Shown here: one piece after another, positions 3,370-52,772 of the stretch
Layout of the letters: each line of letters starts with the position of its first letter
Numbering within the stretch: the first letter of the stretch is position 1
Source: Bacteroidota bacterium
GTDB lineage: Bacteria > Bacteroidota > Ignavibacteria > Ignavibacteriales > Ignavibacteriaceae
Assembly (NCBI GenBank): GCA_021824565.1
Contig: JAKAKL010000115.1
Location: 1-53,546, forward strand
Reading direction: 5' to 3'
Length of the DNA stretch: 53,546 nt
The notes under the pieces: generated by a model
Databases searched by the model: none
Told to the model about the DNA's origin: nothing
The model's input: the letters and a program-made list of their open reading frames with translations, nothing else
Position numbers and translations under genes: made by a program

Positions 3370-3385
3370 GTATAAATATTATTTA

Positions 3386-5263
3386 TTAAGAGGGAACAAT
3401 ATTTTTTACTTTCATCCAACCCAATGCTTTTAACCAACGTTCTTTGGGAATTCTTTTCTTTGATTCGTGCCAGTTATTTAATACTTCATTAACAATTTCA
3501 TCATCACTTACGCTTGGATTATTCTTCAATAAATCTTCCCAAGCTGAATATAATGTTGCGACAATTTCGCATTGAACTGAATTAGCTGTTCTGAAAGTAT
3601 TGATTATTAAAAAGATATTTCCTCTTTTATCGCCATAGTATTCTTGGAATTTCTGTGAATGCTGTCCGGCATATTCAAGCGCTTGATAAAATACCCTTCC
3701 ATTTTCATTAACTGCTTTAAACCATTTATGCTCTTCTAATTGTTTATCGATTGATCTTAAGGCAACGTTATCATAAGGACCGGCAGCTTGTCTATAATAT
3801 TTAGTTTTAATATCGAGGTGCGCTAATTTCTCTGCTAAAAATAATAGCTTAACAAATTTTATATGTCCAAAAGTTGGTTCTTTATATAATTGAGAAATGA
3901 TCTCTGCAGCTAAAACAGTGCGAGCATAATACGGATTCTTAGGTGTTTTTATTTCATAAATATTTGCAGTAAATTTTATTTTCCCGGTTACTGCTTCTGC
4001 AATTATGGAATTTTTGTACTGTTTACTATATTCAATTTCAACGTTAAAAATTTTTTCAATCTTTTCTAATTCTTTTATTTTTTCATCAATATATTCAACT
4101 ATTTGGTTTTGTTCATTCAATGGTGGAATAACAAATTTCACATTTATGATTTTTTCTCTTGTTAGATGACCTATGCTAACTTTATTTATTATGGAATTGA
4201 AATAACCAGTTTTATTCATCAAAAAGAATTGATAATAGAAAAACTTATAATTATTATTTTTGTTCAAGGTTATTTTATGTACTGAATTTTGAATATAGCA
4301 TTCATCACTATCTTCTTCCCAAATACTTGTTCTGCCAATATCACCACCTTCGCTTACCAATAAATCATTTCTGTTCAATCTAAGTGTTTTCATCTCAGAT
4401 TCTGAGAACCACATATTATAAACATCTGAAATGTCAACTTTTCCCCACTGGATATTTGCTGATCTTAGGTATGGTTTAAAATATTCATTTTTATTTGACT
4501 GATTATTTTGCAGCATTTTACCTAAAACGATTTTGGCATTGTATTTAATTTTTTCAATTCGCCAGTCTTCCGGTATTTGCCCTAACCACGCTATACAGCT
4601 ATCCTTCATCTTAACATCTGCATTAATCCCTTTTGACAAAGCTTTATTTATTATTGCTGCTTTTTGTTCGTTAAGAAGTGTTATGAGTTTTTGTTTTGCG
4701 GAGATGAAGTTATTAATATCTGTAATTTTTTCATCAAGGTATTTTACAATTGCATCTTGTTCTGGACGGGATGGAAAAGGTAATATAATTTTTCTAAATT
4801 CTTTGAAACTTATATTCTTTCCGTCTCTAATACCAGTAATTGCCTTATTTAATTCTAGAATAAAGCTATAGGACTTTAGTAAATAAGAGAAGTATTTTTC
4901 ATTTATTGGGCAAATTGATCTTAAAACCGTATAAGCAGGACTAACGATGCCGCGATAATTTGAATATTCAATACCACCTTGAAACGATCTTAAACTAATT
5001 ACAAAATCTTTTTCCTCTACTAATTTAAATCCATTTAATTCACCCATAGGCATCATAACTCTATCTTCAAGTAAATCTCTTGGTATCACGCCTTTATCTT
5101 GAGTAGCAGATAATAATATCTCTTCGGGTTTATTTTTTACACTTATTTCTTTGAATATTCTTTTTGCAGGTATCAATTCCCAAGTAGAAGGGATTTCCCC
5201 AATCCAAGGTTCGCCAGATTCTATCAAATAATTAGTACTAATTTTGGTATCAATCTTCATCAT
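3386..5263 (-). CDS. hsdS: Type I restriction specificity subunit with C-terminal extra domain
   Basis: HsdS recognises the target sequence and holds the HsdM and HsdR subunits together. Two target-recognition domains (about residues 20-165 and 225-380) each end in a conserved helix: EQDAIVKYLDEKI (168-180) and NEQNQIVEYIDEKI (383-396). The first is followed by LNEQKAAIINKALSKGI and the second by YKNSIIAEAVTGKI. An ordinary HsdS would end at about residue 435. This one has about 180 more residues, including IKFVKLLFLAEKL (468-480) and RQAAGPYDN (491-499). These resemble the KLLYFAD and GP motifs of Panacea/DUF4065-type domains, which is my inference. The start ATG overlaps the hsdM stop by 4 nt, so the two are translationally coupled. 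Confidence 0.93.
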   Translation of the reverse strand: MMKIDTKISTNYLIESGEPWIGEIPSTWELIPAKRIFKEISVKNKPEEILLSATQDKGVIPRDLLEDRVMMPMGELNGFKLVEEKDFVISLRSFQGGIEYSNYRGIVSPAYTVLRSICPINEKYFSYLLKSYSFILELNKAITGIRDGKNISFKEFRKIILPFPSRPEQDAIVKYLDEKITDINNFISAKQKLITLLNEQKAAIINKALSKGINADVKMKDSCIAWLGQIPEDWRIEKIKYNAKIVLGKMLQNNQSNKNEYFKPYLRSANIQWGKVDISDVYNMWFSESEMKTLRLNRNDLLVSEGGDIGRTSIWEEDSDECYIQNSVHKITLNKNNNYKFFYYQFFLMNKTGYFNSIINKVSIGHLTREKIINVKFVIPPLNEQNQIVEYIDEKIKELEKIEKIFNVEIEYSKQYKNSIIAEAVTGKIKFTANIYEIKTPKNPYYARTVLAAEIISQLYKEPTFGHIKFVKLLFLAEKLAHLDIKTKYYRQAAGPYDNVALRSIDKQLEEHKWFKAVNENGRVFYQALEYAGQHSQKFQEYYGDKRGNIFLIINTFRTANSVQCEIVATLYSAWEDLLKNNPSVSDDEIVNEVLNNWHESKKRIPKERWLKALGWMKVKNIVPS

Positions 5264-7335
5264 TTAACTTGCAAAATATTCTTTAACAATCCTTCGGTTT
5301 CTTTTTCTAGTTTTATAATTTCATCAGTGATTTCTTTAGTATCTCTCAAGAGTTCATACTTATAAAAATATCTTGTAAAAGGAATTTCATAACCAATAGA
5401 GGACTTGCTTTCATCAATCCAGGCATCCGGCACATAAGGTAAAACTTCTCTTTTAAAGAAAGCCTTAATGCCACCTTTTTCTAAAAGAGGCACTTGCTCT
5501 GATTCTCTTAAATCTGTGTCCGGTTCATATTCAATTGTACCATCTTTATTAACTTTGCTTATAACCGGCTCGGCTTTTTCATCTTTAACTGATAATTCTT
5601 GCTTTAAAAGTTTCTCACTTTTGGAATTAAATTTTACTCCGAATTCTTCGCAATCTTCTTTGACTATTTCAATGAACTTATTGAAATCTGAAAAGGGATG
5701 ATCTCCTTTATCTTTAGCAATTCTTTCGATGGAATTGTAAACTGGCTCTTCATTCACCTCTGCACATTTTTTTTTGAAAACTTGAAGATTTTCTTTTGAG
5801 AGTTCTACTTTTAATCTTAATGGACGTTCAACTGTAATTTTCCAATAGCCGAATTCTTCATTCGGAAATATTTTTGAATTTTCATTTTCTTTAAAATCTA
5901 AATAAGTATCTGTAATAAGTTTTATATGCTCATCTGTAAGTTCACAATTCTTTTGACCAAGATTTTTCCTTAGTTTACTTAACCAATCAACGGCATTTAT
6001 AAGCTGCACTTTCCCTTTTCTTTGTTCAGGTTTTTTATTTGTAATAACCCATATATAAGTAGCAATTCCGGTATTATAAAACATATTTAACGGCAAAGCT
6101 ATAATTGCTTCAAGCCAATCATTTTCAATAATCCACCTTCTAATATTAGATTCACCTTGCCCGGCATCTCCCGTAAATAATGAGGAGCCATTATGTACCG
6201 TGGCAATTCTACTTCCGAAAGGAGAATCTTTTGGAGATTTCATCTTGCTAATCATGTTAACAAGGAACATCAACTGACCATCACTTGAACGTGTAACAAG
6301 ATTATATTCGCTATTTCCATCGTGTGTAATAATAAATCTTGGATCTTGGATTTCTTTTTTGTTACCGCTGCATAGGCGGTCGAGATCGGTTTTCCAGCTT
6401 TTCCCATAAGGCGGATTTGCCAGCATGAAATGAAAGTTTCTTGAAGGAAATGCATCTGCGGAAAGAGTTGAACCATATTTTATATTATCAGCTTGTTCGC
6501 CTTCACCTTTAAGAATAAAATCTGCTTTACAAATTGCATAAGTTTCCGGACCTACTTCTTGTCCAAACAAATGAATCTGTACTTTCTTTTTGTAATCATT
6601 AGCAATTTGATGCAAAGTTTCTTCAGCGACGGTAAGCATTCCGCCGGTCCCGCATGCGCAATCGTAGACAAGGTATGTACTGTTTTTTATCTGATCGGCA
6701 ACCGGAACTAAAACAAGATTTGCCATTAGTCGAATAACTTCTCGCGGTGTAAAATGTTCCCCAGCTTCTTCATTGTTCTCTTCATTGAATTTTCTGATCA
6801 GCTCTTCAAAGACAAAACCCATCCCGTGGTTATCAAGGCCAGGCAGTTTAATTTCACCATTTTCGTTGTAAACAGGATTAGGACTGAGATTAATGTCCGG
6901 GCTAATAAACTTTTCAATTAAATGCCCTAAAACATCGGCTTCGGACAGCTTTCTTAATTGGTTTCTGAAATCAAACTTTTCAATAATTTCTTGTACATTC
7001 TTGCTATAGCTATCAAGGTAAGTCTCAAAATTTTGTTTAAGCTGTTTTGGATTATTTAGTAAGTTTTTAAGAGTAAATTTTGAAGTATTATAAAAAGATT
7101 GTCCGGCAGCTTGTCTTAATACAAACTCTTGTTCCATAATTTTAGCTTTATCAAGAGTTTCTTTTTGCTTTGAGACTTCGTCTTTAGTTGGTTCAAGCAG
7201 AACATCTAATCTGCGAATTACAGTCATAGGTAAAATAACATCACGGTATTTGCCTCGGACATAGACATCGCGTAAAACGTCATCTGCAATGTTCCAGATA
7301 AAACTAACAATTCGGTTTTGTTCGGTATGATTCAA
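5260..7335 (-). CDS. hsdM: Type I modification DNA methyltransferase (N6-adenine)
   Basis: HsdM methylates adenine in the HsdS-defined site and so protects the host. The N-terminal four-helix part (about 1-150) is followed by the methyltransferase fold. GEHFTPREVI (192-201), the SAM-binding motif I DCACGTGGML (225-234) and the catalytic motif IV NPPYG (307-311) are all intact. At 691 residues it is longer than the classical roughly 520. The extra length is in the C-terminal part, which is acidic and lysine-rich after about residue 520, as is common in this HsdM subgroup. It lies 23 nt downstream of the ABC-3C ATPase gene and overlaps hsdS by 4 nt, so one transcript probably covers the ABC-3C and hsd genes. 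Confidence 0.96.
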   Translation of the reverse strand: MNHTEQNRIVSFIWNIADDVLRDVYVRGKYRDVILPMTVIRRLDVLLEPTKDEVSKQKETLDKAKIMEQEFVLRQAAGQSFYNTSKFTLKNLLNNPKQLKQNFETYLDSYSKNVQEIIEKFDFRNQLRKLSEADVLGHLIEKFISPDINLSPNPVYNENGEIKLPGLDNHGMGFVFEELIRKFNEENNEEAGEHFTPREVIRLMANLVLVPVADQIKNSTYLVYDCACGTGGMLTVAEETLHQIANDYKKKVQIHLFGQEVGPETYAICKADFILKGEGEQADNIKYGSTLSADAFPSRNFHFMLANPPYGKSWKTDLDRLCSGNKKEIQDPRFIITHDGNSEYNLVTRSSDGQLMFLVNMISKMKSPKDSPFGSRIATVHNGSSLFTGDAGQGESNIRRWIIENDWLEAIIALPLNMFYNTGIATYIWVITNKKPEQRKGKVQLINAVDWLSKLRKNLGQKNCELTDEHIKLITDTYLDFKENENSKIFPNEEFGYWKITVERPLRLKVELSKENLQVFKKKCAEVNEEPVYNSIERIAKDKGDHPFSDFNKFIEIVKEDCEEFGVKFNSKSEKLLKQELSVKDEKAEPVISKVNKDGTIEYEPDTDLRESEQVPLLEKGGIKAFFKREVLPYVPDAWIDESKSSIGYEIPFTRYFYKYELLRDTKEITDEIIKLEKETEGLLKNILQVK

Positions 7336-11429: not shown

Positions 11430-12560
11430 ATGGATGGATTACAAGGATTGTTGGGTAAACTGAATATGGAAGATATTGAGAAGCTGAAAGCTTTGATGTC
11501 TTACGCACCGGAAGCGGCAGCTAAGGATGTTGTAACGCTGAGGGTGTTTGATGAAGAGTATAAAACTATTGTTCAAAACAATAAATCAATTTCATACTTC
11601 AAGTCGGTATCCACAGCTTTTAAGTATCTTTTTGAATTTTTCGGACCTCAAAAAGCAATCGGCAGCATATCACTGAAAGATGTTGAATCGTTTATGATTT
11701 TCTTACAGAAAAGAGTCAAATCCGTCTCGCAAGCGAGCCGAGACAAGCCCGTCTCGCATTCTGCGAGTCGTGGCGGAGAAGGATATGTAGTCTATTACAG
11801 AAACTTGAAGGCTGCATTTAATAAGGCTCTGGATTGGGGTTATGTAAAAGAGAATTACTTCACTAAAGTAAAATTGCCTAAGAGACAGAAAACTGCGCCG
11901 GTGTTTATCAACAGCGATCAACTTACAGCTATCAGCAATCATATAAAACTAAAAGTTGTTCGGGATGTTGTTACAATTGGATTTTATACGGGGATGAGAT
12001 TGAATGAGATTGTTAATCTGAAATGGAAGAATGTTGATTTGAATTCTAGGACAATTACGGTAGGCGATGAGGAGTTTGTAACTAAGGGAAGGAAGCAGAG
12101 ATTTATTCCAATTTGCGAGGAAGCGTTTGAAGTATTGGTAAAACGAAAACGGAATGAATACGGAAACAACCCACCCCTTAATCCCCTCCAAGGAGGGGAA
12201 AACAAATCAAATGTTATACCTATTGGGAATAGTTATTTGTTTTGTAAAAGAAATGGAGAACCGTTTACGGGGGATTATTTTTCACGAAGATTTAAGAGAG
12301 CTTGTAAAGGAGCCGGAATGGATAGAGCAATTCATTTTCATTCTCTGAGACATAGTTTCGCTTCTAATCTTGCACAGCAGGGTGTTTCTTTGTATGTAAT
12401 TAAAGAATTGCTAGGACATTCTTCAATTTCTACAACGGAGATTTATAGTCATTTGAATATGGAATCGTTGAGAGATGCTGTTAGAAAACTAGATAGCCTT
12501 CACAAAAAAAGCGAAGTGGAACATTTGAAATTGATTAATGGAGGAAAGAATGGACTTTAA
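11430..12560 (+). CDS. Tyrosine recombinase/integrase with repeat-derived insertions
   Basis: This is a site-specific recombinase of the phage integrase family, 376 residues. It has an N-terminal SAM-like core-binding domain (about 25-150) and a catalytic domain (about 155-360). The catalytic set is complete: R in YTGMRLNEI, K in FVTKGRKQRF, HxxR in FHSLRHSFAS, H in LGHSSIS and the nucleophile Y in TTEIYSHL. It is related to the integrase at 19729-20745 (FYTGMRL.EI and GVSLYV.KELLGH shared). Against that relative it has two extra segments. One lies in the core-binding domain (around KSVSQASRDKPVSHSASRGG) and one near residue 250 (around NPPLNPLQGGEN). Both are encoded by GC-rich palindromic DNA. 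It overlaps the primase gene by 11 nt, so the two are coupled. Confidence 0.93.
   Translation: MDGLQGLLGKLNMEDIEKLKALMSYAPEAAAKDVVTLRVFDEEYKTIVQNNKSISYFKSVSTAFKYLFEFFGPQKAIGSISLKDVESFMIFLQKRVKSVSQASRDKPVSHSASRGGEGYVVYYRNLKAAFNKALDWGYVKENYFTKVKLPKRQKTAPVFINSDQLTAISNHIKLKVVRDVVTIGFYTGMRLNEIVNLKWKNVDLNSRTITVGDEEFVTKGRKQRFIPICEEAFEVLVKRKRNEYGNNPPLNPLQGGENKSNVIPIGNSYLFCKRNGEPFTGDYFSRRFKRACKGAGMDRAIHFHSLRHSFASNLAQQGVSLYVIKELLGHSSISTTEIYSHLNMESLRDAVRKLDSLHKKSEVEHLKLINGGKNGL
11723..11774. repeat. Palindromic in-frame insertion 1 in the integrase
   Basis: Two adjacent hairpins are visible: GTCTCG with CGAGAC around an inner CTCGC/GCGAG, then CTCGCA-TTC-TGCGAG. The segment encodes about 17-20 residues that the related integrase at 19729 lacks, between two helices of its core-binding domain. 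Confidence 0.7.
12183..12198. repeat. Palindromic in-frame insertion 2 in the integrase
   Basis: CCCCTCC-AA-GGAGGGG is a perfect 7-bp stem. It sits in a stretch encoding NPPLNPLQGGEN, which the related integrase lacks. The composition is sharply more GC-rich than the surrounding gene. Confidence 0.75.
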
Positions 12561-19728: not shown

Positions 19729-20745
19729 TTATATAAGATTAACCGCATCTTTTAAATTCTGACTTTGTAAATGCGAATAAATCTGAGTAGTACTCAAATC
19801 TTCATGACCTAATAATTCTTTAACAACATAAAGAGAAACACCGCGTTGAACTAACATTGAAGCGAATGAATGCCGTAAAATGTGGAAATGGACTTCATCA
19901 TCTAAACCGGCAGCACGGACATATTTTTTAAATTGTTTGCTTACAAAGTTTTCATTTAAGCGGATACAATTAACACGATAGTAAACTAATTCATCTTTAT
20001 TGATAGATAAAACTTGAGGAACACGATTAAGTAAAACTAGACGCAAAGTATTGTTAATGGGGATTATTCTTTCTTTTTTACTTTTTGTTGTAAACGTTTC
20101 TGAGTTTTGAACTTTAATAATATTCTGATTAAAGTCTATCCAGGACCACTTCATGTTTATAATTTCTCCGAGGCGCATACCGGTATAAAAGCCGGTGACG
20201 AATAAATCTTTCAAGTATGTTTGTTTGGTTTTATCAAGAATGGATTGAAATTCAGAAAGTGAAATAAAAACCGGAAAGGTTTTTACTTGCTTGGGCGCTT
20301 TGATTTTCTTTAGAGGATTTTCCGGGAGATAATTCCAAACTACAGCTTTACTGAAAGCTGCTTTAAGTGTACGGTAATAAAGTGATGCCGCTTTGGGTGC
20401 GTGTGCATAAGTTGAGGTAATGAATTTATCCAGGGTTCTTGTATCAAGCCAATTAATGTTTATATCTCCGCAAAATAATTTTAGACGGGAGAAAGAAAGG
20501 TTAATTGATCTTAAATAGCTTTTCGATTTTGTGTTTGAAACATAGATGCAATACTCTTCTTGAAATTTTGAAAGCAAGATGCTTTTATTCTGCTGCTTTT
20601 GTTCATGAGGTGAGACTAAGAAGCTGCCTAAAAATTTGTTGGCTTCCTGAAGGTTGGTTGTCTTAGTTGAAACTGTTGTACGCTTTCCATTCGGAAAGTA
20701 CACAATTTGATAATAAGGGGACTTGCTGTTTTTAGTTAAGTACAT
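19729..20745 (-). CDS. Tyrosine integrase at the tRNA end of the island
   Basis: This site-specific recombinase of 338 residues is the likely integrase of the island. It has an AP2-like/arm-binding N-terminus (YLTKNSKSPYYQIVYFPNG), a SAM-like domain (about 55-140) and a catalytic domain. R in YTGMRLGEI, K in FTTKSKKERI, HxxR in FHILRHSFAS, H in LGHEDLS and Y in TTQIYSHL are all intact. I chose the ATG at 20745 because GAAGGAG is 8 nt upstream; the next ATG at 20766 lacks a site. The gene starts 90 nt from a tRNA 3' fragment, the classic layout of a tRNA-integrating element. It is related to the other integrase at 11430. Confidence 0.93.
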   Translation of the reverse strand: MYLTKNSKSPYYQIVYFPNGKRTTVSTKTTNLQEANKFLGSFLVSPHEQKQQNKSILLSKFQEEYCIYVSNTKSKSYLRSINLSFSRLKLFCGDININWLDTRTLDKFITSTYAHAPKAASLYYRTLKAAFSKAVVWNYLPENPLKKIKAPKQVKTFPVFISLSEFQSILDKTKQTYLKDLFVTGFYTGMRLGEIINMKWSWIDFNQNIIKVQNSETFTTKSKKERIIPINNTLRLVLLNRVPQVLSINKDELVYYRVNCIRLNENFVSKQFKKYVRAAGLDDEVHFHILRHSFASMLVQRGVSLYVVKELLGHEDLSTTQIYSHLQSQNLKDAVNLI

Positions 20746-20802
20746 TTGAATAACTCCTTCCGTCATGTATGGACTTTGTATGGAGTTACTCCATTTTGCT
20801 CG

Positions 20803-43535: not shown

Positions 43536-44969
43536 TTATACTACCTTTACTGTTGGGAAGCTAACCGTAAACTTTGTACCGGCTGGAATATTATCTTCAA
43601 CTTTTATTGTTCCTTCCATCGATTGTACTATCGTTTTTACCAAACATAAACCCAATCCGTAACCTTTTATGTTTTCTTTTATTGATGAGGCGGCACGGTA
43701 AAATCTTTCAAATATTTTTTCTTTTTCTTCATCACTAATCCCGTATCCATAATCTTCAACGCTTATAATTATATTATCATAATATCTTTTAGCTGTTACT
43801 GCTATACCGGGATTGTTTGGCGAATACTTAATTGCGTTATCAATTAAATTTTCCAGCACTATTTGAAATCCTTCCGCAGTACCTCGTACATAAAGGTAAT
43901 CGCCAATATCATAATTAATATTATATTCCTTAAAAGCCGGCTTTATATAATCATTGATTACTTGAGATACCATAAATACACTTTGGTTATTATCAGTGCT
44001 GCCACTGTACTTTGCAATAATTAAAAGAGATTTTATTATGCTTATCATTTTATCTGTCTGCACATTCAGCAATGTTAAAGTTTCTTTATATTCCTCCGGT
44101 TTTCTATCATGTTTTAAAATATATTCCAATTCAGTTTTAACTGCAGTCAGCGGTGTCATCAATTGATGAGATGCATTATCGGTGAATTGGGATATTTGAT
44201 TAATCTGAACTTCCAGTCTAGTGAATAAATTATTTAAAGTGTCTCTCAATCTTCCTAATTCATCTTCAGGATGCGCTTCATATTTAATTCTTGCATTTAG
44301 ATTATTAGCGGAGATGTTTTCTGCAATACTTATAATCTTATTCAACGGCGAATAACTTTTCTTTGCCAAGAAAATACTAACAACAATAATTAAAGCGAGT
44401 ATGAACGGAAGGTTAAGCAGATTGAATAATATTATCTTTTTCATTACAGAGCTGTATTCTGTTCTGAAGACAGAAAGCTGTAGATAAGCCACAATTTTAT
44501 TCTTATCATTTAGCATTGGCGCGTAAACAACCCTAAGTTGGTGATTACCCGCAGCAAGGTTCTCAAATTCATACTGTGTACTTGTAAAGGGAAATTTGAA
44601 GGGTATTGCTTCAAATGATTTTATATTATCACTGCTTAAAAGCAGTTTGCCTTTTACACCATAAACTTGAAGAAAAAAAGCACCGGAATTTACCGTTGTG
44701 AAATCCGGCTCTTTAATTTCACTATAACCTAAAAATTTTATCGAATCTGCCTGAACTGTAAAAGAATCAAGAAGTGTCGCTACCTCGTTCTTTAATCTCT
44801 CATCAAGGTTATCGGTTAAGATTTTATTTGTTATGACAATTGTAAAAATATTTGAAGTTATAAACAGAAGAAAAAATATTACAATATCCCAAAGTACAAT
44901 ACGTTTAACGGTATCTGTAAAAACTGGTTTCTTTATCTTATTCGGTAATAAAAAGATAGCCTTCTCCAT
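43536..44969 (-). CDS. Sensor histidine kinase
   Basis: This membrane sensor kinase has 477 residues. Transmembrane helices lie at about 25-48 and 182-203, with an extracytoplasmic sensor of about 130 residues between them. A HAMP linker follows (about 204-258). The HisKA domain has the phospho-acceptor His268 in DNASHQLMTPL, and the HATPase domain has NLIDNAIKYSPN, DYGYGISDEEKEKIFERFYR and GYGLGLCLVKTI. All boxes are intact. It overlaps the response-regulator gene by 32 nt. It probably senses an envelope or redox cue and controls the divergent cytochrome gene, which is an inference from position only. Confidence 0.95.
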   Translation of the reverse strand: MEKAIFLLPNKIKKPVFTDTVKRIVLWDIVIFFLLFITSNIFTIVITNKILTDNLDERLKNEVATLLDSFTVQADSIKFLGYSEIKEPDFTTVNSGAFFLQVYGVKGKLLLSSDNIKSFEAIPFKFPFTSTQYEFENLAAGNHQLRVVYAPMLNDKNKIVAYLQLSVFRTEYSSVMKKIILFNLLNLPFILALIIVVSIFLAKKSYSPLNKIISIAENISANNLNARIKYEAHPEDELGRLRDTLNNLFTRLEVQINQISQFTDNASHQLMTPLTAVKTELEYILKHDRKPEEYKETLTLLNVQTDKMISIIKSLLIIAKYSGSTDNNQSVFMVSQVINDYIKPAFKEYNINYDIGDYLYVRGTAEGFQIVLENLIDNAIKYSPNNPGIAVTAKRYYDNIIISVEDYGYGISDEEKEKIFERFYRAASSIKENIKGYGLGLCLVKTIVQSMEGTIKVEDNIPAGTKFTVSFPTVKVV

Positions 44970-45606: not shown

Positions 45607-45768
45607 GCTCTTACAAATTTATACTCTTATAAATAATGAAATTTTCCCGTTGTAGCAAGATTCAAACAAAAAGTGAATGATTTTTCATTATTGTTAATTA
45701 TCCTCTGGGGCTAACCTTATATACATTTGAGTCGTACAAAAATATTGAATTAAGAATTAGGTTTTACT

Positions 45769-47451
45769 ATGAAAACAAGAAAATACTTTCTAACATTTTT
45801 AAGTCTTCTGTTCTTGTTGTTAATGGAGAATGTTGGCTACGCACAAACTTGCCAATCATGCCATTCTACAGAAGCAGCTTTGTGGTCAAGCAGTAAACAT
45901 GCCGCCTCTCAAGCAGATGTCGCTTCCGAAATCTCTGCTAATTGGGTTGGTCAAACTCCCGACTCAATTATCGTTGGCTCTCAAGCCGAAGATTGTATCT
46001 CATGCCATGCACCTACTGCCGATACGGTAAATGGCGGTATGACTGAAATCCAGGCAATGGGTTATTTCTTCTCTACAACAAATGGTAAATACACCAGCAC
46101 AACGCAGCCAACTAACACTTCCTCGTGGCCTAATGTAGATTGCGAAACTTGTCATCAAAGCGATATGACAACATTCGGCGTGTTTAATTCTGTTACTAAA
46201 TCTTATGACGCAGTAAAAACTGCAAATGATTTATGCGGTAACTGTCATGGCACTGTAAGGCATCCGGATACCGACCACCGGATTTACGACGCTTGGCTCT
46301 CAAGCAAACACGGGCAAAAAGGACAAGATGATGTTGCCGGTGAATTAGCCGGAAGTCATAGCGGTGAAACTCCAGATGCTGTTATTGCCGGCGAAGATTG
46401 CATTGCCTGTCATGCGCCAACTTCTGTTACTCTTAATGGAGGTATGACTGAAGCACAAGCTTTAGCTAAATTTTTCTCAACTTCTAATGGCGCTTTTACT
46501 TCTTCCACTTCTCCAATCGATACAGTTGATTATCCAAATGTAAGCTGTATTGCATGCCATAATCCGCACGATCCGGATACTCTTTCTTACTTTAACTCGG
46601 CAACTAAAACTTACCAGATAATGAGTTCATCCGATCAGCTCTGCGGGCAGTGCCACGGCAATTTGAGATTCCCGGATACTGATCATCTTAGTTATAATAT
46701 AAATTCCGGAACCGGCGGCAAGAATGTTTCAAATATTACTTCCATGAACGGGGTAAAATGTATAGACTGCCACATGTACAATACCGGCATCGATGGATCA
46801 AATTCTGCTATGTATAAGGGACATACATGGTCTGTTTTTGTTAAAGAGCCCGACGGTAGTGTTGATGCTTCTTGCACTAAATGCCACTCAACAATGTCAG
46901 CCGATTCTGCAATAGCTCTCGTGCAGCAATGGAAAAATAATTTTCAAGCTTTGGATTCGATTGCAGAAGCTAAAGTAACTGCCGCAGCAAATCACTTAAC
47001 CAATAGTATCGATTCAAGCAATTTTGAGGAAGCTCAGTTCAATATGACTTATGCTGAATCAGATGAAAGCGGCGGAGTTCATAATCATCTTTACAGCGTT
47101 GAATTGCTGAATGACGCTATCAGCAAGGCAAATCTTATTGTTACCGGAATTGCTTCCAATAATTTTAGCAAACCATTAACATTTAATTTAGCTCAGAACT
47201 ATCCAAATCCATTTAACCCAAGTACTAAAATAAACTATACCATACCGAAACAAGGTTATGTAACACTAAAGGTTTACGATATACTTGGAAGAGAAGTCGC
47301 CACGCTGGTAAATGGATTTAAGAATGAAGGTAATTATACTACAGACTTTAATGAGAATATTTCTGCTAAAGGATTAACGAGCGGTATTTATATTTATCAA
47401 TTAAAAGAAGGCTCCTTTGTTCAAACTAGAAAAATGGTTCTTCTAAAATAA
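45769..47451 (+). CDS. Nine-heme c-type cytochrome with type IX sorting domain
   Basis: This secreted multiheme cytochrome has 560 residues and a signal peptide (about 1-25, ending GYAQ). Nine CxxCH heme sites begin at 28, 76, 125, 156, 211, 260, 292, 331 and 369. The first seven fall in two tandem repeats with shared segments (CxSCHAPT...NGGMTE.QA, FFST.NG, CGNCHG then PDTDH), giving a c554-like arrangement. After a helical segment comes a type IX sorting domain (NYPNPFNPST to RKMVLLK), so it is probably attached to the cell surface and may carry electrons to external acceptors. The T9SS-fused multiheme design is the notable feature. It has its own terminator at 47493. Confidence 0.93.
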   Translation: MKTRKYFLTFLSLLFLLLMENVGYAQTCQSCHSTEAALWSSSKHAASQADVASEISANWVGQTPDSIIVGSQAEDCISCHAPTADTVNGGMTEIQAMGYFFSTTNGKYTSTTQPTNTSSWPNVDCETCHQSDMTTFGVFNSVTKSYDAVKTANDLCGNCHGTVRHPDTDHRIYDAWLSSKHGQKGQDDVAGELAGSHSGETPDAVIAGEDCIACHAPTSVTLNGGMTEAQALAKFFSTSNGAFTSSTSPIDTVDYPNVSCIACHNPHDPDTLSYFNSATKTYQIMSSSDQLCGQCHGNLRFPDTDHLSYNINSGTGGKNVSNITSMNGVKCIDCHMYNTGIDGSNSAMYKGHTWSVFVKEPDGSVDASCTKCHSTMSADSAIALVQQWKNNFQALDSIAEAKVTAAANHLTNSIDSSNFEEAQFNMTYAESDESGGVHNHLYSVELLNDAISKANLIVTGIASNNFSKPLTFNLAQNYPNPFNPSTKINYTIPKQGYVTLKVYDILGREVATLVNGFKNEGNYTTDFNENISAKGLTSGIYIYQLKEGSFVQTRKMVLLK

Positions 47452-47700: not shown

Positions 47701-49303
47701 GTGCGCCAAGGAAAGCTTGTTGAATCTTATCGGTGGAAGTCCGATACGGGAAAAGGATAGCCGCCAGCCCGTTACAGACTTTTACATAATAGGCGGTAAC
47801 AAATATTATGAAGCTAAAAGAAAGGAGTTATCAGACCGTAATGCAAATGAAGGTATTGAGCCCCGAAAATGAGAATAACTTAAAGGACGACCTTATGCGT
47901 AAGAGGGAAGTCGGAACTATCGTAGCCGAAAAAGAAGGCGAGGAGACGATAGCTTTAACGGGGTCTAAGTCCACGGTATGTTAACACAAGGAAACAACAG
48001 GAACTTGTCCCGAAGGGATCACTATGAGAGGAGACCCGGTTACAGAGGCGTCTTTGGGAGACAAAGAAGCAATGAGTTCAAACAATCCCGAAAACGGTAG
48101 AGGAAGAACTGACAGTAATCCGGGAGTCGGATTAGTTCATAGTAGAGTCAACACTGCGGGAAACCAGAGTGAGAGAAAACAGAGAAGCGATCCGCTCGAA
48201 GGGACTAACAGTCATACGGAGTGTAAAAAGGAAACGTCGACGATCCTTAGAGATGGAGAAAAGACGGAAACAAAATTATTGCACATAGCGAAAGTGTCGA
48301 AAGAAAATCCGGGATACAGGTTTACCTCACTGGCAAGCCTGCTAACGAAGGAATATCTGACGAGCTGCTACAAGGAGCTGAAGAAAGGCAGAGCCAGTGG
48401 AGTAGACGGAATAAGCGTAGAGGAATACGGCGAGAAGCTAAGCGAAAATATAGATGTGCTGATAAGCCGAATGAAGAGGATGTCCTACCGGCCGCAAGCA
48501 GTAAGAAGGCATATATCCCAAAGGACAATGGAGGTAAAAGACCATTAGGCATACCGGCGGTAGAGGACAAGATGTTACAGAAGGCAATAGCCGGGATATT
48601 GGAAGCTATATTTGAGCCGGGATTTCTAGCATCATCATATGGATTTAGGAAAGGCAAGTCGCAGCATGAAGCGTCGAGTAGAATCGACAAAGTAGTGACG
48701 AGCAAGCCAATAAACTATGTGATAGATGCAGATATAAAAGGATTCTTTGATAATGTTGACCATAAATGGATAGTAAAATTCTTAGAGCATCGGATAGGTG
48801 ATAAGAATCTGATAAGGTTGATAGTAAGATTCCTAAAGAGCGGAATAATGGAAGAATGCAGGTATTGGGAAACAGAAAAAGGCACTCCGCAGGGCGGAAT
48901 AATCAGCCCAATACTGAGCAATATATATCTTCATTATGTACTGGACTTATGGATAGAGAAGAAAGTGAAGAAGGAATGTAAAGGATATGTAGAGATAACC
49001 AGGTATGCGGACGACTTTATAATCTGTGTAGAGGATAAGGAAGAAGCATACAAGATGATAGAAGCCTTAAGAGAAAGACTGAATAAATTTGGGTTAATAC
49101 TATCGGAAGAAAAGACACGTATAGTAAGATTCGAAAGGACAGCGGGAAAAGAAGAAAAGCTAAACACATTTGACTTTTTAGGAATGACCCACTTTAACGA
49201 TAAGACAAGGCAAGGATACTATAAGGTAGGACGAAAGACATCGAAGAAGAAATTTAGGATGAAGATGCAAGCAATGAATGAATGGTTAAAGTCATCATCT
49301 TGA
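47701..49303 (+). mobile_element. Group II intron, 3'-truncated
   Basis: The sequence begins GTGCGCC at 47701, the conserved group II 5' end. About 320 nt of structured domain I-III-like RNA follow (for example GATACGGGAAAAGGATAGCC), then a reverse-transcriptase frame. The usual domain V hairpin (GAGCCG then a GAAA loop and CGGTTC) is not seen after 49303, so the 3' part including domains V and VI is missing. It cannot splice or move on its own. It lies 164 nt after the cytochrome terminator, outside any gene. Confidence 0.85.
48024..49303 (+). pseudogene. ltrA: Group II intron reverse transcriptase, frameshifted and truncated
   Basis: The first frame (to about 48509) encodes the RT start LTKEYLTSCYKELKKGRASG and VDGISVEEYG. 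A one-base loss at about 48509-48511 then shifts the frame: SYRPQAVRR is followed in the other frame by YIPKDNGGKRPLGIPAVEDK. That frame runs to 49303 with GTPQGGIISP and the catalytic YADD of RYADDFIIC. The protein stops at WLKSSS, where a maturase (domain X) region of about 120 more residues normally follows. Both defects argue for loss of function. The true RT start is probably nearer 48270 than the first ATG at 48024. Confidence 0.85.
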
Positions 49304-50091: not shown

Positions 50092-50439
50092 ATGTCTGTA
50101 AAACTAACCAATAACAAAAAGTTAAATTCGCTTTTACCTGAAATAGAAAAAAGGTTAAGAGAGTTATTTGGTGATAATGTATTAAAGATTATGCTCTTCG
50201 GCTCTTATGCACGGGGAGATTACAATAATGAATCTGATGTTGACATATTTGTTCTGGTTAATGACGATGATTTAAGAAAATACAGAAAGTTACGTGTTAA
50301 AATTATAAGTGAATATTTGGTATCACATGAGATATTACTCTCTATTAGAATAATTAACGCAGCTGTATTTAATAAGTATAAAGATTTTGTACCTTTTTAT
50401 CAGAACGTCCTGCATGAAGGAATAAGCTTGTATGGATGA
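50092..50439 (+). CDS. Minimal nucleotidyltransferase (MNT) of a HEPN/MNT pair
   Basis: This protein of 115 residues belongs to the pol-beta nucleotidyltransferase fold. The signature GSX10DXD is intact as GSYARGDYNNESDVD (37-51), with metal-binding Asp49 and Asp51. In characterised pairs the MNT protein adds AMP to the HEPN partner and so neutralises it. It overlaps the HEPN gene by 8 nt, the usual arrangement of the pair. No strong ribosome site precedes the ATG at 50092. It lies in a decayed intergenic zone downstream of the intron remnant, typical for toxin-antitoxin-like modules. Confidence 0.88.
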   Translation: MSVKLTNNKKLNSLLPEIEKRLRELFGDNVLKIMLFGSYARGDYNNESDVDIFVLVNDDDLRKYRKLRVKIISEYLVSHEILLSIRIINAAVFNKYKDFVPFYQNVLHEGISLYG

Positions 50440-50839
50440 GCAAAAGATTGGTCTTGCTAAATACAGACTTGAAAAAGCAAGGGAAGAACTCAAAAGTGCA
50501 AGGCAATCCTACGTTAACAAGCTTTTGAGTGTATTTCTGGGTAGTTCCTATTATTCAATATTTCATTCTGTAAGAACACTTTTTGCATTAGAAGGAGTTG
50601 ACAGCAAAACACATAAAGGGGTATCACATTTGTTCAATCTTCATTTTATTAAAACAAAGCTTCTCCCGGTGAAGATGAACGAAATTTTATCTGGAGCTTT
50701 TGAAATGAGACTGGATAGTGATTATGAAGACTTTTATATCGCCAGTAAAGAAGAAGCAAAAGAACAAATAGACAACGCCGAATTTTTTCAAACTGAAATC
50801 CTAAAATTTATAAAGCAGCGTTATAACGTTGAGTTATAA
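50432..50839 (+). CDS. HEPN-domain protein partner of MNT
   Basis: This all-helical HEPN protein has 135 residues of the PF05168-like type. SSYYSIFHSVRTLFALEGV (about 37-55) and KTHKGVSHLFNLHFIKT (about 60-76) are its conserved helices. RLDSDYEDFYIASKEEA follows. Many HEPN toxins are RNases with an R-x4-6-H motif; I find no such spacing here (Arg48 to His62 is too far), so RNase activity is doubtful. The pair may instead act as a non-canonical toxin-antitoxin or regulatory module. The start ATG at 50432 lies within the MNT 3' end, 8-nt overlap. Confidence 0.83.
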   Translation: MDEQKIGLAKYRLEKAREELKSARQSYVNKLLSVFLGSSYYSIFHSVRTLFALEGVDSKTHKGVSHLFNLHFIKTKLLPVKMNEILSGAFEMRLDSDYEDFYIASKEEAKEQIDNAEFFQTEILKFIKQRYNVEL

Positions 50840-51881: not shown

Positions 51882-52772
51882 TTATACTAATTCTTTAACG
51901 GCGCAGTTGTTGCATTCAAACTGAAGAGTGGTATGTGTAATCTCAAATTTTTCATGAAGCAGTTCTTTTATTCTCTTTTGCATAATGTTGGTATCACCGA
52001 TTAGGATGTTGTCGGTTTCTACATGAGCTTCAAAGTGAATATCGGTATCGTTTAACTTCCACAAATGAACATGATGAATATTTTTAATGCCCGGTATTGA
52101 TTTTACCAATTCACTTAGATACTGTACATCTATTTCTGCGGGAGATGACATCATAATTATATCAAGAGCTTCTTTAACTATTCCGTACGCTTCTTTGAAA
52201 ATATATAAGGAAATTAAAATTGTTAAAATGGGGTCGAGCCAATAGATATTAAAGTAAATAATAAACACAGCGCCAATTATAACTGCGAGGCTTGATACTG
52301 CATCGCCTATCAAATGAAGGTAAGCCGCTTTGAGATTAAGATTCTTATCCGAACCCTTCTTTAGAAGGACAGTGCCAACCAAATTTGCAATCAAGCCTCC
52401 AGCAGCTACAATTAGCATTAAGGAGCCGTTGATTGTTGAAGGGTTGTATAATCTATCGAAAGCTTCTTTAATAAGAAAGAAGCTTATGATTATAAGTGCG
52501 CTTGAGTTGATAATTGCAGCTAAGATTTCAGCTCGCTTTAATCCGAAAGTATATTTTAATGAACGCGGCTTTTTGCTTAACTTAATTGCAATATAACTTA
52601 TGATTATTGCAATGCCGTCGCTAAAATTATGGAATGCATCCGAAAGTAAAGATAAACTGCCGGAAAATATTCCGCCGATAATTTCAATTATTGTTATGAA
52701 GAAATTAAGCAGCATGGTTACTAACAATCTTGCAGTGCTTGTTTCTGCTGAATGATGATGATCGTGTGACAT
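51882..52772 (-). CDS. Cation diffusion facilitator (zinc-type exporter)
   Basis: This CDF-family metal/proton antiporter of the cytoplasmic membrane has 296 residues. The His-rich N-terminus (SHDHHHSAE) precedes six transmembrane helices. Helix II carries SDAFHNFSD (44-52), with the metal-site H48 and D52. Helix V carries HLIGDAVSS (153-161) with H153 and D157. The H-D/H-D tetrahedral site is the zinc-preferring type of CzcD/ZitB. The cytoplasmic C-terminal domain (about 210-296: LVKSIPGIKNIHHVHLWKLN) is typical and ends with CNNCAVKE, a possible extra metal site. It is close to the phosphorylase gene (22 nt), although a common function is not evident. Confidence 0.94.
   Translation of the reverse strand: MSHDHHHSAETSTARLLVTMLLNFFITIIEIIGGIFSGSLSLLSDAFHNFSDGIAIIISYIAIKLSKKPRSLKYTFGLKRAEILAAIINSSALIIISFFLIKEAFDRLYNPSTINGSLMLIVAAGGLIANLVGTVLLKKGSDKNLNLKAAYLHLIGDAVSSLAVIIGAVFIIYFNIYWLDPILTILISLYIFKEAYGIVKEALDIIMMSSPAEIDVQYLSELVKSIPGIKNIHHVHLWKLNDTDIHFEAHVETDNILIGDTNIMQKRIKELLHEKFEITHTTLQFECNNCAVKELV

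What the first reader, a model, noticed from the sequence alone, without database searches (positions are those of the whole stretch)
45769..47451. Surface-targeted nine-heme cytochrome carrying a type IX sorting domain
Fusion of nine CxxCH sites in two tandem repeats to a type IX C-terminal domain, with a divergent two-component system, suggests a route for extracellular electron transfer that does not use porin-cytochrome conduits.
Basis: partly seen in the sequence, partly recalled or inferred. Interest (0 to 1): 0.7.

Follow-up and report, generated by a model that had tools for sequence, protein, structure and literature searches.

The report
Nine-heme cytochrome sent to cell surface
This gene encodes a nine-heme electron-carrying protein with an address tag for a secretion machine that delivers proteins to the outside of the cell; it belongs to a family widespread in its bacterial class and is related to a known surface protein that passes electrons to minerals and electrodes.

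Summary
In detail: 45769-47451 encodes 560 aa with nine CxxCH motifs, a 53%-identical tandem repeat and a type A T9SS sorting domain. A response regulator and histidine kinase lie divergently. The genome encodes SprA and PorU.

It is an OcwA-type nonaheme (tail-free core profile against OcwA, 6I5B: E 8e-43), kin of the Thermincola surface terminal reductase. The core profile finds relatives in 249 of 391 class genomes. Of 20 further high-scoring hits chosen by the core match, 20 carry a sorting domain and nine heme sites. My searches found no paper describing this fusion.

Surface export fits. "Without porin-cytochrome conduits" does not: on C15 a T9SS nonaheme paralogue heads a block with a predicted beta-barrel and 4-, 14- and 6-heme cytochromes, conserved in 9 of 21 loci. 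T9SS more likely delivers the outer reductase of such a chain; for the window copy this is inference.

The repeats end in residue pairs aligned with OcwA's His-His over its two open hemes; the window clade has Asp-His (18 of 18 and 17 of 18 rows), the second site less surely aligned.

Function is untested. A metal-stress role is the main rival.

The parts
45769..47451 (+). Nonaheme c-type cytochrome with T9SS sorting domain, 560 aa
   Evidence: window-type orthologues in 18 of 391 class genomes, own included (20 matches, two of them, G066 and G069, C15-type by the tree)
45769..45843 (+). Probable Sec signal peptide (residues about 1-25), read by eye
   Evidence: Sequence (MKTRKYFLTFLSLLFLLLMENVGYA|QT); no signal-peptide program was run
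45883..46278 (+). Repeat 1 (residues 39-170; the first heme site at residue 28 lies just before it); ends in Asp169-His170, aligned with OcwA His281-His282 above open heme 2
   Evidence: PMC6703420 passages
46294..46686 (+). Repeat 2 (residues 176-306; hemes at 211, 260, 292); ends in Asp305-His306, which the MAFFT alignment places on the column of OcwA-like His380-His381 above open heme 5
   Evidence: PMC6703420 passages. The profile alignment puts a 7-residue gap here, so this site is less sure than the first
46738..47133 (+). NrfA/OcwA-like C-terminal part: last two hemes and following segment (residues 324-455)
   Evidence: PF02335 match 324-455; OcwA alignment
47200..47439 (+). T9SS type A C-terminal sorting domain (residues 478-557)
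   Evidence: PF18962 35.8 bits; TIGR04183 39.6 bits
44938..45606 (-). OmpR-type response regulator, divergent from the cytochrome
   Evidence: PF00072, PF00486; best NCBIfam matches RppA, PhoB, then cztR_silR_copR, all below cut-off
43536..44969 (-). Sensor histidine kinase (HAMP, HisKA, HATPase_c)
   Evidence: best NCBIfam match cztS_silS_copS, 176.9 bits, below its cut-off of 292.55
45683..45700 (+). 18-bp invariant block in the shared intergenic region; candidate regulator site (inference)
   Evidence: Longest invariant run among four aligned loci from three genomes of the genus; 3 of 20,000 column shuffles reach it; found by looking, not predicted

Best explanation
The protein is an OcwA-type nonaheme cytochrome made for the outside of a diderm cell. 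Predicted route: Sec export, heme attachment in the periplasm, passage of the folded protein through the SprA pore of T9SS by its C-terminal domain, then processing by PorU and attachment at the surface. There it would take electrons from an outer-membrane chain and pass them to an extracellular acceptor (mineral, electrode, shuttle or small oxyanion), as proposed for OcwA in Thermincola. The likely electron source is a porin-cytochrome conduit of the kind encoded on C15, where a T9SS-tailed paralogue heads the cluster; which conduit feeds the window copy is unknown. The tandem repeat holds two similar modules, each ending in a residue pair that aligns with OcwA's His-His over its two open hemes; the window clade has Asp-His there, so two catalytic sites with changed chemistry are predicted. 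The divergent two-component system probably switches the gene. SHOWN by sequence: heme motifs, sorting domain, secretion genes, homology to OcwA, repeat, the Asp-His pairs, conserved clusters. INFERRED: surface location, conduit partnership, the barrel nature of the C15 protein, catalysis, regulation, acceptor.
For: Sorting domain over cut-offs; SprA and PorU in the genome. Core profile A5, built without the sorting domain, matches OcwA 6I5B at E 8e-43 and 6QVM at 2.3e-35. The five histidines outside CxxCH that are invariant or nearly so in my alignment (44, 181, 267, 352, 438; H181 in 45 of 46 rows, the other four in 46 of 46) all align with OcwA histidines. Fusion is a family trait: PF18962 in 46 of 46 aligned members (five of these added by hand), by motif in 21 of 23 further loci, and by a tail model in 20 of 20 of a sample of core-profile hits. 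Core relatives in 249 of 391 class genomes. Five-gene conduit-like cluster with the T9SS paralogue in 9 of 21 C15-type loci. OcwA is surface-located, exchanges electrons with electrodes and reduces iron oxide (PMC6703420, passages).
Against: No porin or other cytochrome is adjacent to the window copy. The structure prediction failed (mean pLDDT 32.3), so heme ligation rests on sequence alignment, and at the second site the profile alignment leaves Asp305-His306 beside a gap. The C15 barrel has no match in Pfam, NCBIfam or PDB; it rests on a crude strand score of mine (rank 5 of 91, where rank 1 reads as a soluble protein) and a C-terminal Phe in 7 of 9 homologues. The C19 'barrel' ranks only 13 of 91, just behind the window's histidine kinase. 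12 of 21 C15-type loci lack the cluster in the flanks fetched, some cut by contig ends. 142 of 391 class genomes have no core-profile match at E 1e-20. Nothing in the sequence names the acceptor.
Confidence: 0.6

Rival explanations
1. A surface metal- or metalloid-reducing protein for detoxification, switched on by metal stress, rather than a respiratory reductase.
For: Kinase scores best against cztS_silS_copS, and cztR_silR_copR is the regulator's third-best match, all below cut-off. A CusA/CzcA-family pump over cut-off lies near the cytochrome in C81 and G251. MerA over cut-off, with an ArsR-like gene, lies near it in G306 and G124. A CDF exporter lies 4.4 kb downstream at 51882-52772. With the same query proteins, the 21 C15-type loci gave no match but one 98-residue partial CusA match beside the own C15 cluster.
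Against: Such genes are near only 5 of 19 window-type loci, and C81 and G251 share one ancestry. The search used six proteins taken from these same loci, so it is biased toward them. The spread of the wider family through the class suggests a broader role.
Confidence: 0.2
2. A surface or secreted enzyme for soluble nitrogen or sulfur compounds (nitrite, hydroxylamine, sulfite), like NrfA, octaheme nitrite reductases or MccA.
For: Core profile hits octaheme nitrite reductases, NrfA and MccA; two predicted open heme sites. OcwA itself reduces nitrite, slowly (PMC6703420, passages).
Against: OcwA and 6QVM are clearly nearer; no CxxCK motif; no nrf, hao or sulfur genes recognised by eye among the ORFs flanking the window gene (not searched).
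Confidence: 0.13
3. One reading: a route of extracellular electron transfer that does without porin-cytochrome conduits.
For: No porin beside the window copy; none was recognised by eye beside the other window-type loci in the flanks I fetched, several of them short (barrels were not searched for there).
Against: A secretion system cannot carry electrons; the genome has one good and one weaker candidate cytochrome-barrel cluster, the good one holding a T9SS nonaheme.
Confidence: 0.05

Closest known systems
OcwA (TherJR_2595) of Thermincola potens, PDB 6I5B
   Same: Nine hemes; profile homology E 8e-43; c554-like start and NrfA-like end in the same order (PMC6703420); five conserved histidines outside CxxCH; two predicted active sites.
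   Different: OcwA is from a Gram-positive. The profile that includes our tail matches OcwA only to chain residue 495 of 526, not in the tail. His-His over hemes 2 and 5 is Asp-His in the window clade (second site less sure). Here the two modules are still 53% identical.
6QVM 'Multiheme cytochrome cf' (I suspect OmhA of Carboxydothermus ferrireducens; not verified, the term 6QVM does not occur in the OmhA paper)
   Same: Second-best PDB match, E 2.3e-35 over profile positions 27-401 of 406.
   Different: 681-residue chain; if OmhA, eleven hemes (PMC7829351, passages).
Porin-cytochrome clusters (Pcc of Geobacter, MtrCAB of Shewanella; reported in Ignavibacterium album, PMC4245776, and in two Ignavibacteria genomes, PMC7399161; passages)
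   Same: The C15 paralogue sits in a cluster of predicted barrel plus cytochromes.
   Different: The window gene has no adjacent porin. In C15 the candidate outer cytochrome carries a T9SS tail. I did not compare the barrel with OmbB, MtrB or ExtB.
T9SS type A substrates (TIGR04183/PF18962)
   Same: Sorting domain over both cut-offs, SprA and PorU present.
   Different: No paper joining T9SS terms with multiheme-cytochrome terms was found (0 papers; six, none on this by title and start of abstract).

Membership tests
OcwA-type nonaheme cytochromes (NrfA/HAO superfamily) | Nine heme-binding motifs | tested here: met
   Nine CxxCH. In the 46 aligned members 40 have nine; of the other six, four have 8 plus one CxxxCH/CxxxxCH, one row was cut after its first motif (nine in full), one has 8
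OcwA-type nonaheme cytochromes (NrfA/HAO superfamily) | Significant sequence homology to OcwA over the heme core | tested here: met
   Single sequence E 3.3e-12, mainly over 255-453; core profile E 8e-43. The stretch with the first heme aligns only weakly (domain E 0.1)
OcwA-type nonaheme cytochromes (NrfA/HAO superfamily) | His-His motif over the two five-coordinate hemes | tested here: not met
   Asp-His in 18 of 18 and 17 of 18 window-type rows (one Asn-His); the C15-type keeps the first His in 19 and 20 of 21 rows. So this clade is a variant, not a copy, of OcwA. The second site lies beside a gap in the profile alignment
OcwA-type nonaheme cytochromes (NrfA/HAO superfamily) | Cell-surface location and reduction of electrode or iron oxide | not testable with these tools
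   Needs cells or protein
T9SS type A substrate | C-terminal sorting domain over curated cut-off | tested here: met
T9SS type A substrate | T9SS translocon and sortase encoded by the same genome | tested here: met
   SprA, PorU; GldKLMN, PorV and PorT not searched
T9SS type A substrate | Actual secretion and CTD cleavage | not testable with these tools
   Needs experiment
Porin-cytochrome conduit | Outer-membrane barrel gene adjacent to the cytochrome | tested here: not met
   Window locus: two-component system on one side, group II intron on the other
Heavy-metal two-component systems (CusRS/CopRS) | Scores over the curated cut-offs of TIGR01387 and TIGR01386 | tested here: not met
   180.8 against 279.2 and 176.9 against 292.55

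The most novel reading that the evidence does not exclude
In the class of this genome (probably Ignavibacteria) T9SS is the general delivery route for OcwA-type terminal reductases, a convergent answer to the lipoprotein-anchored cytochromes of Shewanella and Geobacter. In one family it supplies the outer reductase of a conduit I found no description of (barrel, 14-heme, 6-heme lipoprotein, 4-heme), and the window clade has re-tooled both of its catalytic heme sites from His-His to Asp-His for another acceptor.
Probability: 0.4. Interest if true: 0.75.

Novelty: new variant of a known kind. Interest (0 to 1): 0.6.

Why it matters
How these diderm bacteria place heme proteins on their surface is open. 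A class-wide family that fuses an OcwA-type reductase to a T9SS tail makes it testable: deletion of sprA or of the tail should strip surface heme. It also links reductases known structurally from Gram-positives with diderm bacteria reported to increase with Fe(III) dosing and on anodes (PMC11495043 and PMC7399161, passages), and offers a paired comparison (His-His against Asp-His) for how OcwA-type active sites choose substrates.

Tried and rejected
Structure: AlphaFold2 on the window protein with the only admissible nine-heme relative (L036) gave mean pLDDT 32.3 and was not used for fold search. The genome-contig scan with the full-length protein was swamped by sorting domains: of its 80 loci one (L036) held a full nine-heme relative and one (L059) the cut-off end of another, so organism names are missing for nearly all relatives; genome-search loci are unnamed.

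Chance: rejected by shuffles. A simple palindrome pattern as regulator site was not significant in the window (1 match against 2.27 expected, and not at this site); only the conserved 18-bp block was kept. The heme-pattern search of the genome lists only its first 100 of 398 places, so the inventory of four T9SS nonahemes rests on the profile search; other heme proteins of the genome, with or without tails, may be missed. Of 175 sorting-domain candidates in the genome 150 were scored.

Rows dropped: G065 C93 (contig ends after four motifs, L132) was left out of alignments but counted among the 19 window-type loci. G124 has no in-frame start codon in its contig and was entered from locus position 7028 on. 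In one search, L204 (in-frame stop before any tail; the frame runs on) and L212 (contig end) lack a visible sorting domain. The 20-hit sample came from the listed, higher-scoring hits only (E 2.4e-83 or better) and was picked by me across families, not at random. The tail model was built from 39 family tails; other ORFs in those loci (a 608-aa frame with 7 plus 1 sites cut by a contig end, a 568-aa frame with 6) were not counted.

Results that weaken my reading: besides the five loci with the conserved pair, G065 has an unlike regulator-kinase pair upstream of its cut cytochrome (36% and 30% identity) and G101 and G081 a kinase-like gene (25-27%) beside it. My strand score for barrels also ranks soluble-looking proteins high.

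Literature: searches (cytochrome terms with T9SS or Por terms) gave 0 papers; one gave 6, 30 gave 1 and 60 gave 1. Those six were judged by title and start of abstract; the papers of 30 (PMC11495043) and 60 (PMC3534657) by passages: neither describes this fusion in what I saw. PMC5492636 was looked at by passages; the terms multiheme, multihaem and T9SS do not occur in its main text. Searches were looked at as listings save the papers named here. Subscription papers and preprints are mostly not held, so 'not in print' means not in these searches.

Full report
THE OBSERVATION. The ORF at 45769-47451 (+) codes for 560 residues. It starts with what reads as a Sec signal peptide (by eye), carries nine CxxCH motifs and ends in a T9SS type A sorting domain, PF18962 at 478-557 with 35.8 bits against a cut-off of 27 and TIGR04183 with 39.6 against 23. 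Shuffled copies of residues 26-475 average 0.029 motifs, with at most 2 in 20,000. Two tandem repeats, residues 39-170 and 176-306, share 71 of 134 positions. One heme motif precedes repeat 1, three lie in it, three in repeat 2, and two follow. A response regulator and a histidine kinase are transcribed away from it.

THE SECRETION SIDE. The genome (G000, 4.59 Mb, 148 contigs) has at least 150 matches to the sorting domain (150 of 175 candidates scored), the SprA translocon at 1023.5 bits against a cut-off of 200 and the PorU sortase at 979.9 against 420. The tail therefore has a machine to read it. Whether the protein is really exported cannot be seen from sequence. That T9SS passes folded proteins, so that a cytochrome matured in the periplasm could pass, is recalled knowledge.

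WHAT THE CYTOCHROME IS. The single sequence matches one PDB entry well, 6I5B (E 3.3e-12), which PMC6703420 (passages) identifies as OcwA, the nonaheme surface terminal reductase of Thermincola potens. A profile of 17 window-type proteins gives E 4.5e-17, and a profile of 19 diverse cores without the tail gives 8e-43 for OcwA and 2.3e-35 for 6QVM, followed by octaheme nitrite reductases, NrfA and, lower, MccA. The five histidines outside CxxCH that are invariant or nearly so in my 46-row alignment (44, 181, 267, 352, 438; H181 in 45 of 46 rows) all align with OcwA histidines; that they are heme ligands is inferred. The paper describes OcwA as a pentaheme unit joined to a c554-like tetraheme scaffold, with hemes 2 and 5 open and His-His pairs 281/282 and 380/381 above them. 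By my count these pairs are residues 252/253 and 351/352 of the printed chain. The first falls on Asp169-His170 in both the MAFFT and the profile alignment; the second falls on the column of Asp305-His306 in MAFFT, while the profile alignment leaves that pair beside a 7-residue gap. Both pairs stand at the same place, the ends of the two repeats, which supports the second assignment. In the window clade the first position is Asp in 18 of 18 and 17 of 18 rows (one Asn). In the C15-type the first His is kept in 19 of 21 and 20 of 21 rows and the full His-His in 9 and 8. The tandem repeat thus most likely reflects two similar catalytic modules. Heme ligation itself is inferred; the structure model was too poor to use.

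THE FAMILY. Searching with the window core alone gives 20 of 391 genomes of the class, of which 18 hold the window type and two the C15 type by the tree, and 6 of 395 of a phylum sample, all within the class. The C15 core gives 46 of 391 at E 1e-20: 21 are C15-type, the rest a third group of longer proteins where examined. The joint core profile finds matches in 249 of 391, and four full members in the own genome. The tail goes with the core: 46 of 46 aligned members match PF18962 at E 0.001 (five of these, L036, L009, L122:8750, L134:9645 and L179:10006, were added by hand), 21 of 23 further loci show it by motif, the two others being interrupted or cut, and in a sample of 20 further core-profile hits 20 of 20 carry it, with nine CxxCH in 19 and eight plus one longer site in one. 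In the tree the window type is one clade (SH-aLRT 100), the C15 type another (98), the rest a third (93). The named relative L036 is an Ignavibacteriae metagenome genome; I take the class to be Ignavibacteria, which no tool stated for the window.

THE CONDUIT QUESTION. On C15 the nonaheme paralogue with its tail is followed on the same strand by a tetraheme c554-like protein, a 425-aa protein without matches in Pfam, NCBIfam or PDB, a 14-heme and a 6-heme cytochrome with a lipoprotein-like start. The 425-aa protein ranks 5 of 91 in a crude count of amphipathic strands, which also ranks some soluble-looking proteins high, and ends in Phe, as do 7 of 9 homologues, itself included. The five genes keep order and strand in 9 of the 21 C15-type loci, all nine in the own family; in one of them the last cytochrome has eight motifs. 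The other 12 lack the cluster in the flanks fetched, some cut by contig ends. A weaker candidate on C19 has an Fe-S/FAD oxidoreductase, a 20-heme, a 30-heme and a 558-aa protein ending in Phe with no Pfam match and strand rank 13 of 91. Porin-cytochrome clusters have been reported for Ignavibacterium album (PMC4245776, passages) and for two Ignavibacteria from bioanodes (PMC7399161, passages; 'secretion' and 'sorting' do not occur in its main text). The simplest reading is that T9SS brings the outer reductase to a conduit. For the window copy no partner is adjacent, so this step is inference.

REGULATION AND CONTEXT. The divergent regulator and kinase accompany the cytochrome in five of 19 window-type loci: C123, C81, G251, G289 and G086. 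G065 has an unlike pair beside its cut copy, and G101 and G081 a kinase-like gene. The shared intergenic region holds an 18-bp block identical in four loci of the genus (3 of 20,000 column shuffles reach that run), with a similar stretch in G086. The kinase scores best against a heavy-metal kinase family, the regulator against RppA, PhoB and then a heavy-metal family, all below cut-off. A CusA/CzcA pump lies near the gene in C81 and G251, MerA in G306 and G124, and a CDF exporter in the window. This supports a metal-stress rival, though at few loci and with queries taken from those loci.

VERDICT. A well-supported new variant: OcwA-type nonaheme reductases with a T9SS tail, widespread in one class, here as a clade with altered catalytic pairs. 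I found no description of the fusion (searches: no paper; 30, 41 and 60: none relevant in what I saw). PMC7829351 (passages) already notes that OcwA groups with nonahemes from Gram-negative bacteria; 'sorting' does not occur in its main text. PMC11495043 (passages) predicts secreted multiheme cytochromes in Bacteroidota in general terms and, in the passages I saw, names type-9 secretion only as an example of a system with non-canonical signal peptides. Function remains to be tested.

Noticed in passing
window 47736-47973 and 48024-49303: Group II intron RNA (RF02005, 117.6 bits) directly downstream of the cytochrome; a reverse-transcriptase-like protein (by eye, not searched) reads in two frames (48024-48548, 48572-49303), so it looks broken.
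   Followed up: partly
window 50092-50439 and 50432-50839: Overlapping nucleotidyltransferase (PF01909) and HEPN (PF05168) genes, a toxin-antitoxin-like pair.
   Followed up: no
window 51882-52772: CDF-family cation exporter, over the family cut-off; ZitB-like but below the ZitB cut-off.
   Followed up: partly
L008 8429-15300 (own genome C19): Cluster of Fe-S/FAD oxidoreductase, 20-heme and 30-heme cytochromes with repeated heme blocks, and a 558-aa protein ending in Phe; the two cytochrome genes overlap by 22 bases.
   Followed up: partly
L009 7133-9520 (own genome C3): A fourth, longer (795 aa) nine-heme protein with T9SS tail; PF18962 just under cut-off at 26.8 bits on the protein, 30.6 and over it in the genome search.
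   Followed up: partly
L124 2824-6564 and L127 3347-5976: MerA (over cut-off) and an ArsR-like gene (63% alike between the two) near the cytochrome in two different families of the class.
   Followed up: partly
L134 13302-15767 and L196 2-2290: A 13-heme cytochrome next to a 369-aa protein of unknown kind (76% alike between the two genera), beside 912-aa T9SS nonahemes.
   Followed up: no
L195, L196, L197, L205, L208, L210, L211: T9SS-tailed multiheme proteins in tandem pairs, suggesting repeated local duplication.
   Followed up: no
window 370-7335, 11430-12560, 19729-20766: Three genes that read like type I restriction-modification subunits, and two integrase-like genes (ORFs; read by eye, not searched).
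   Followed up: no
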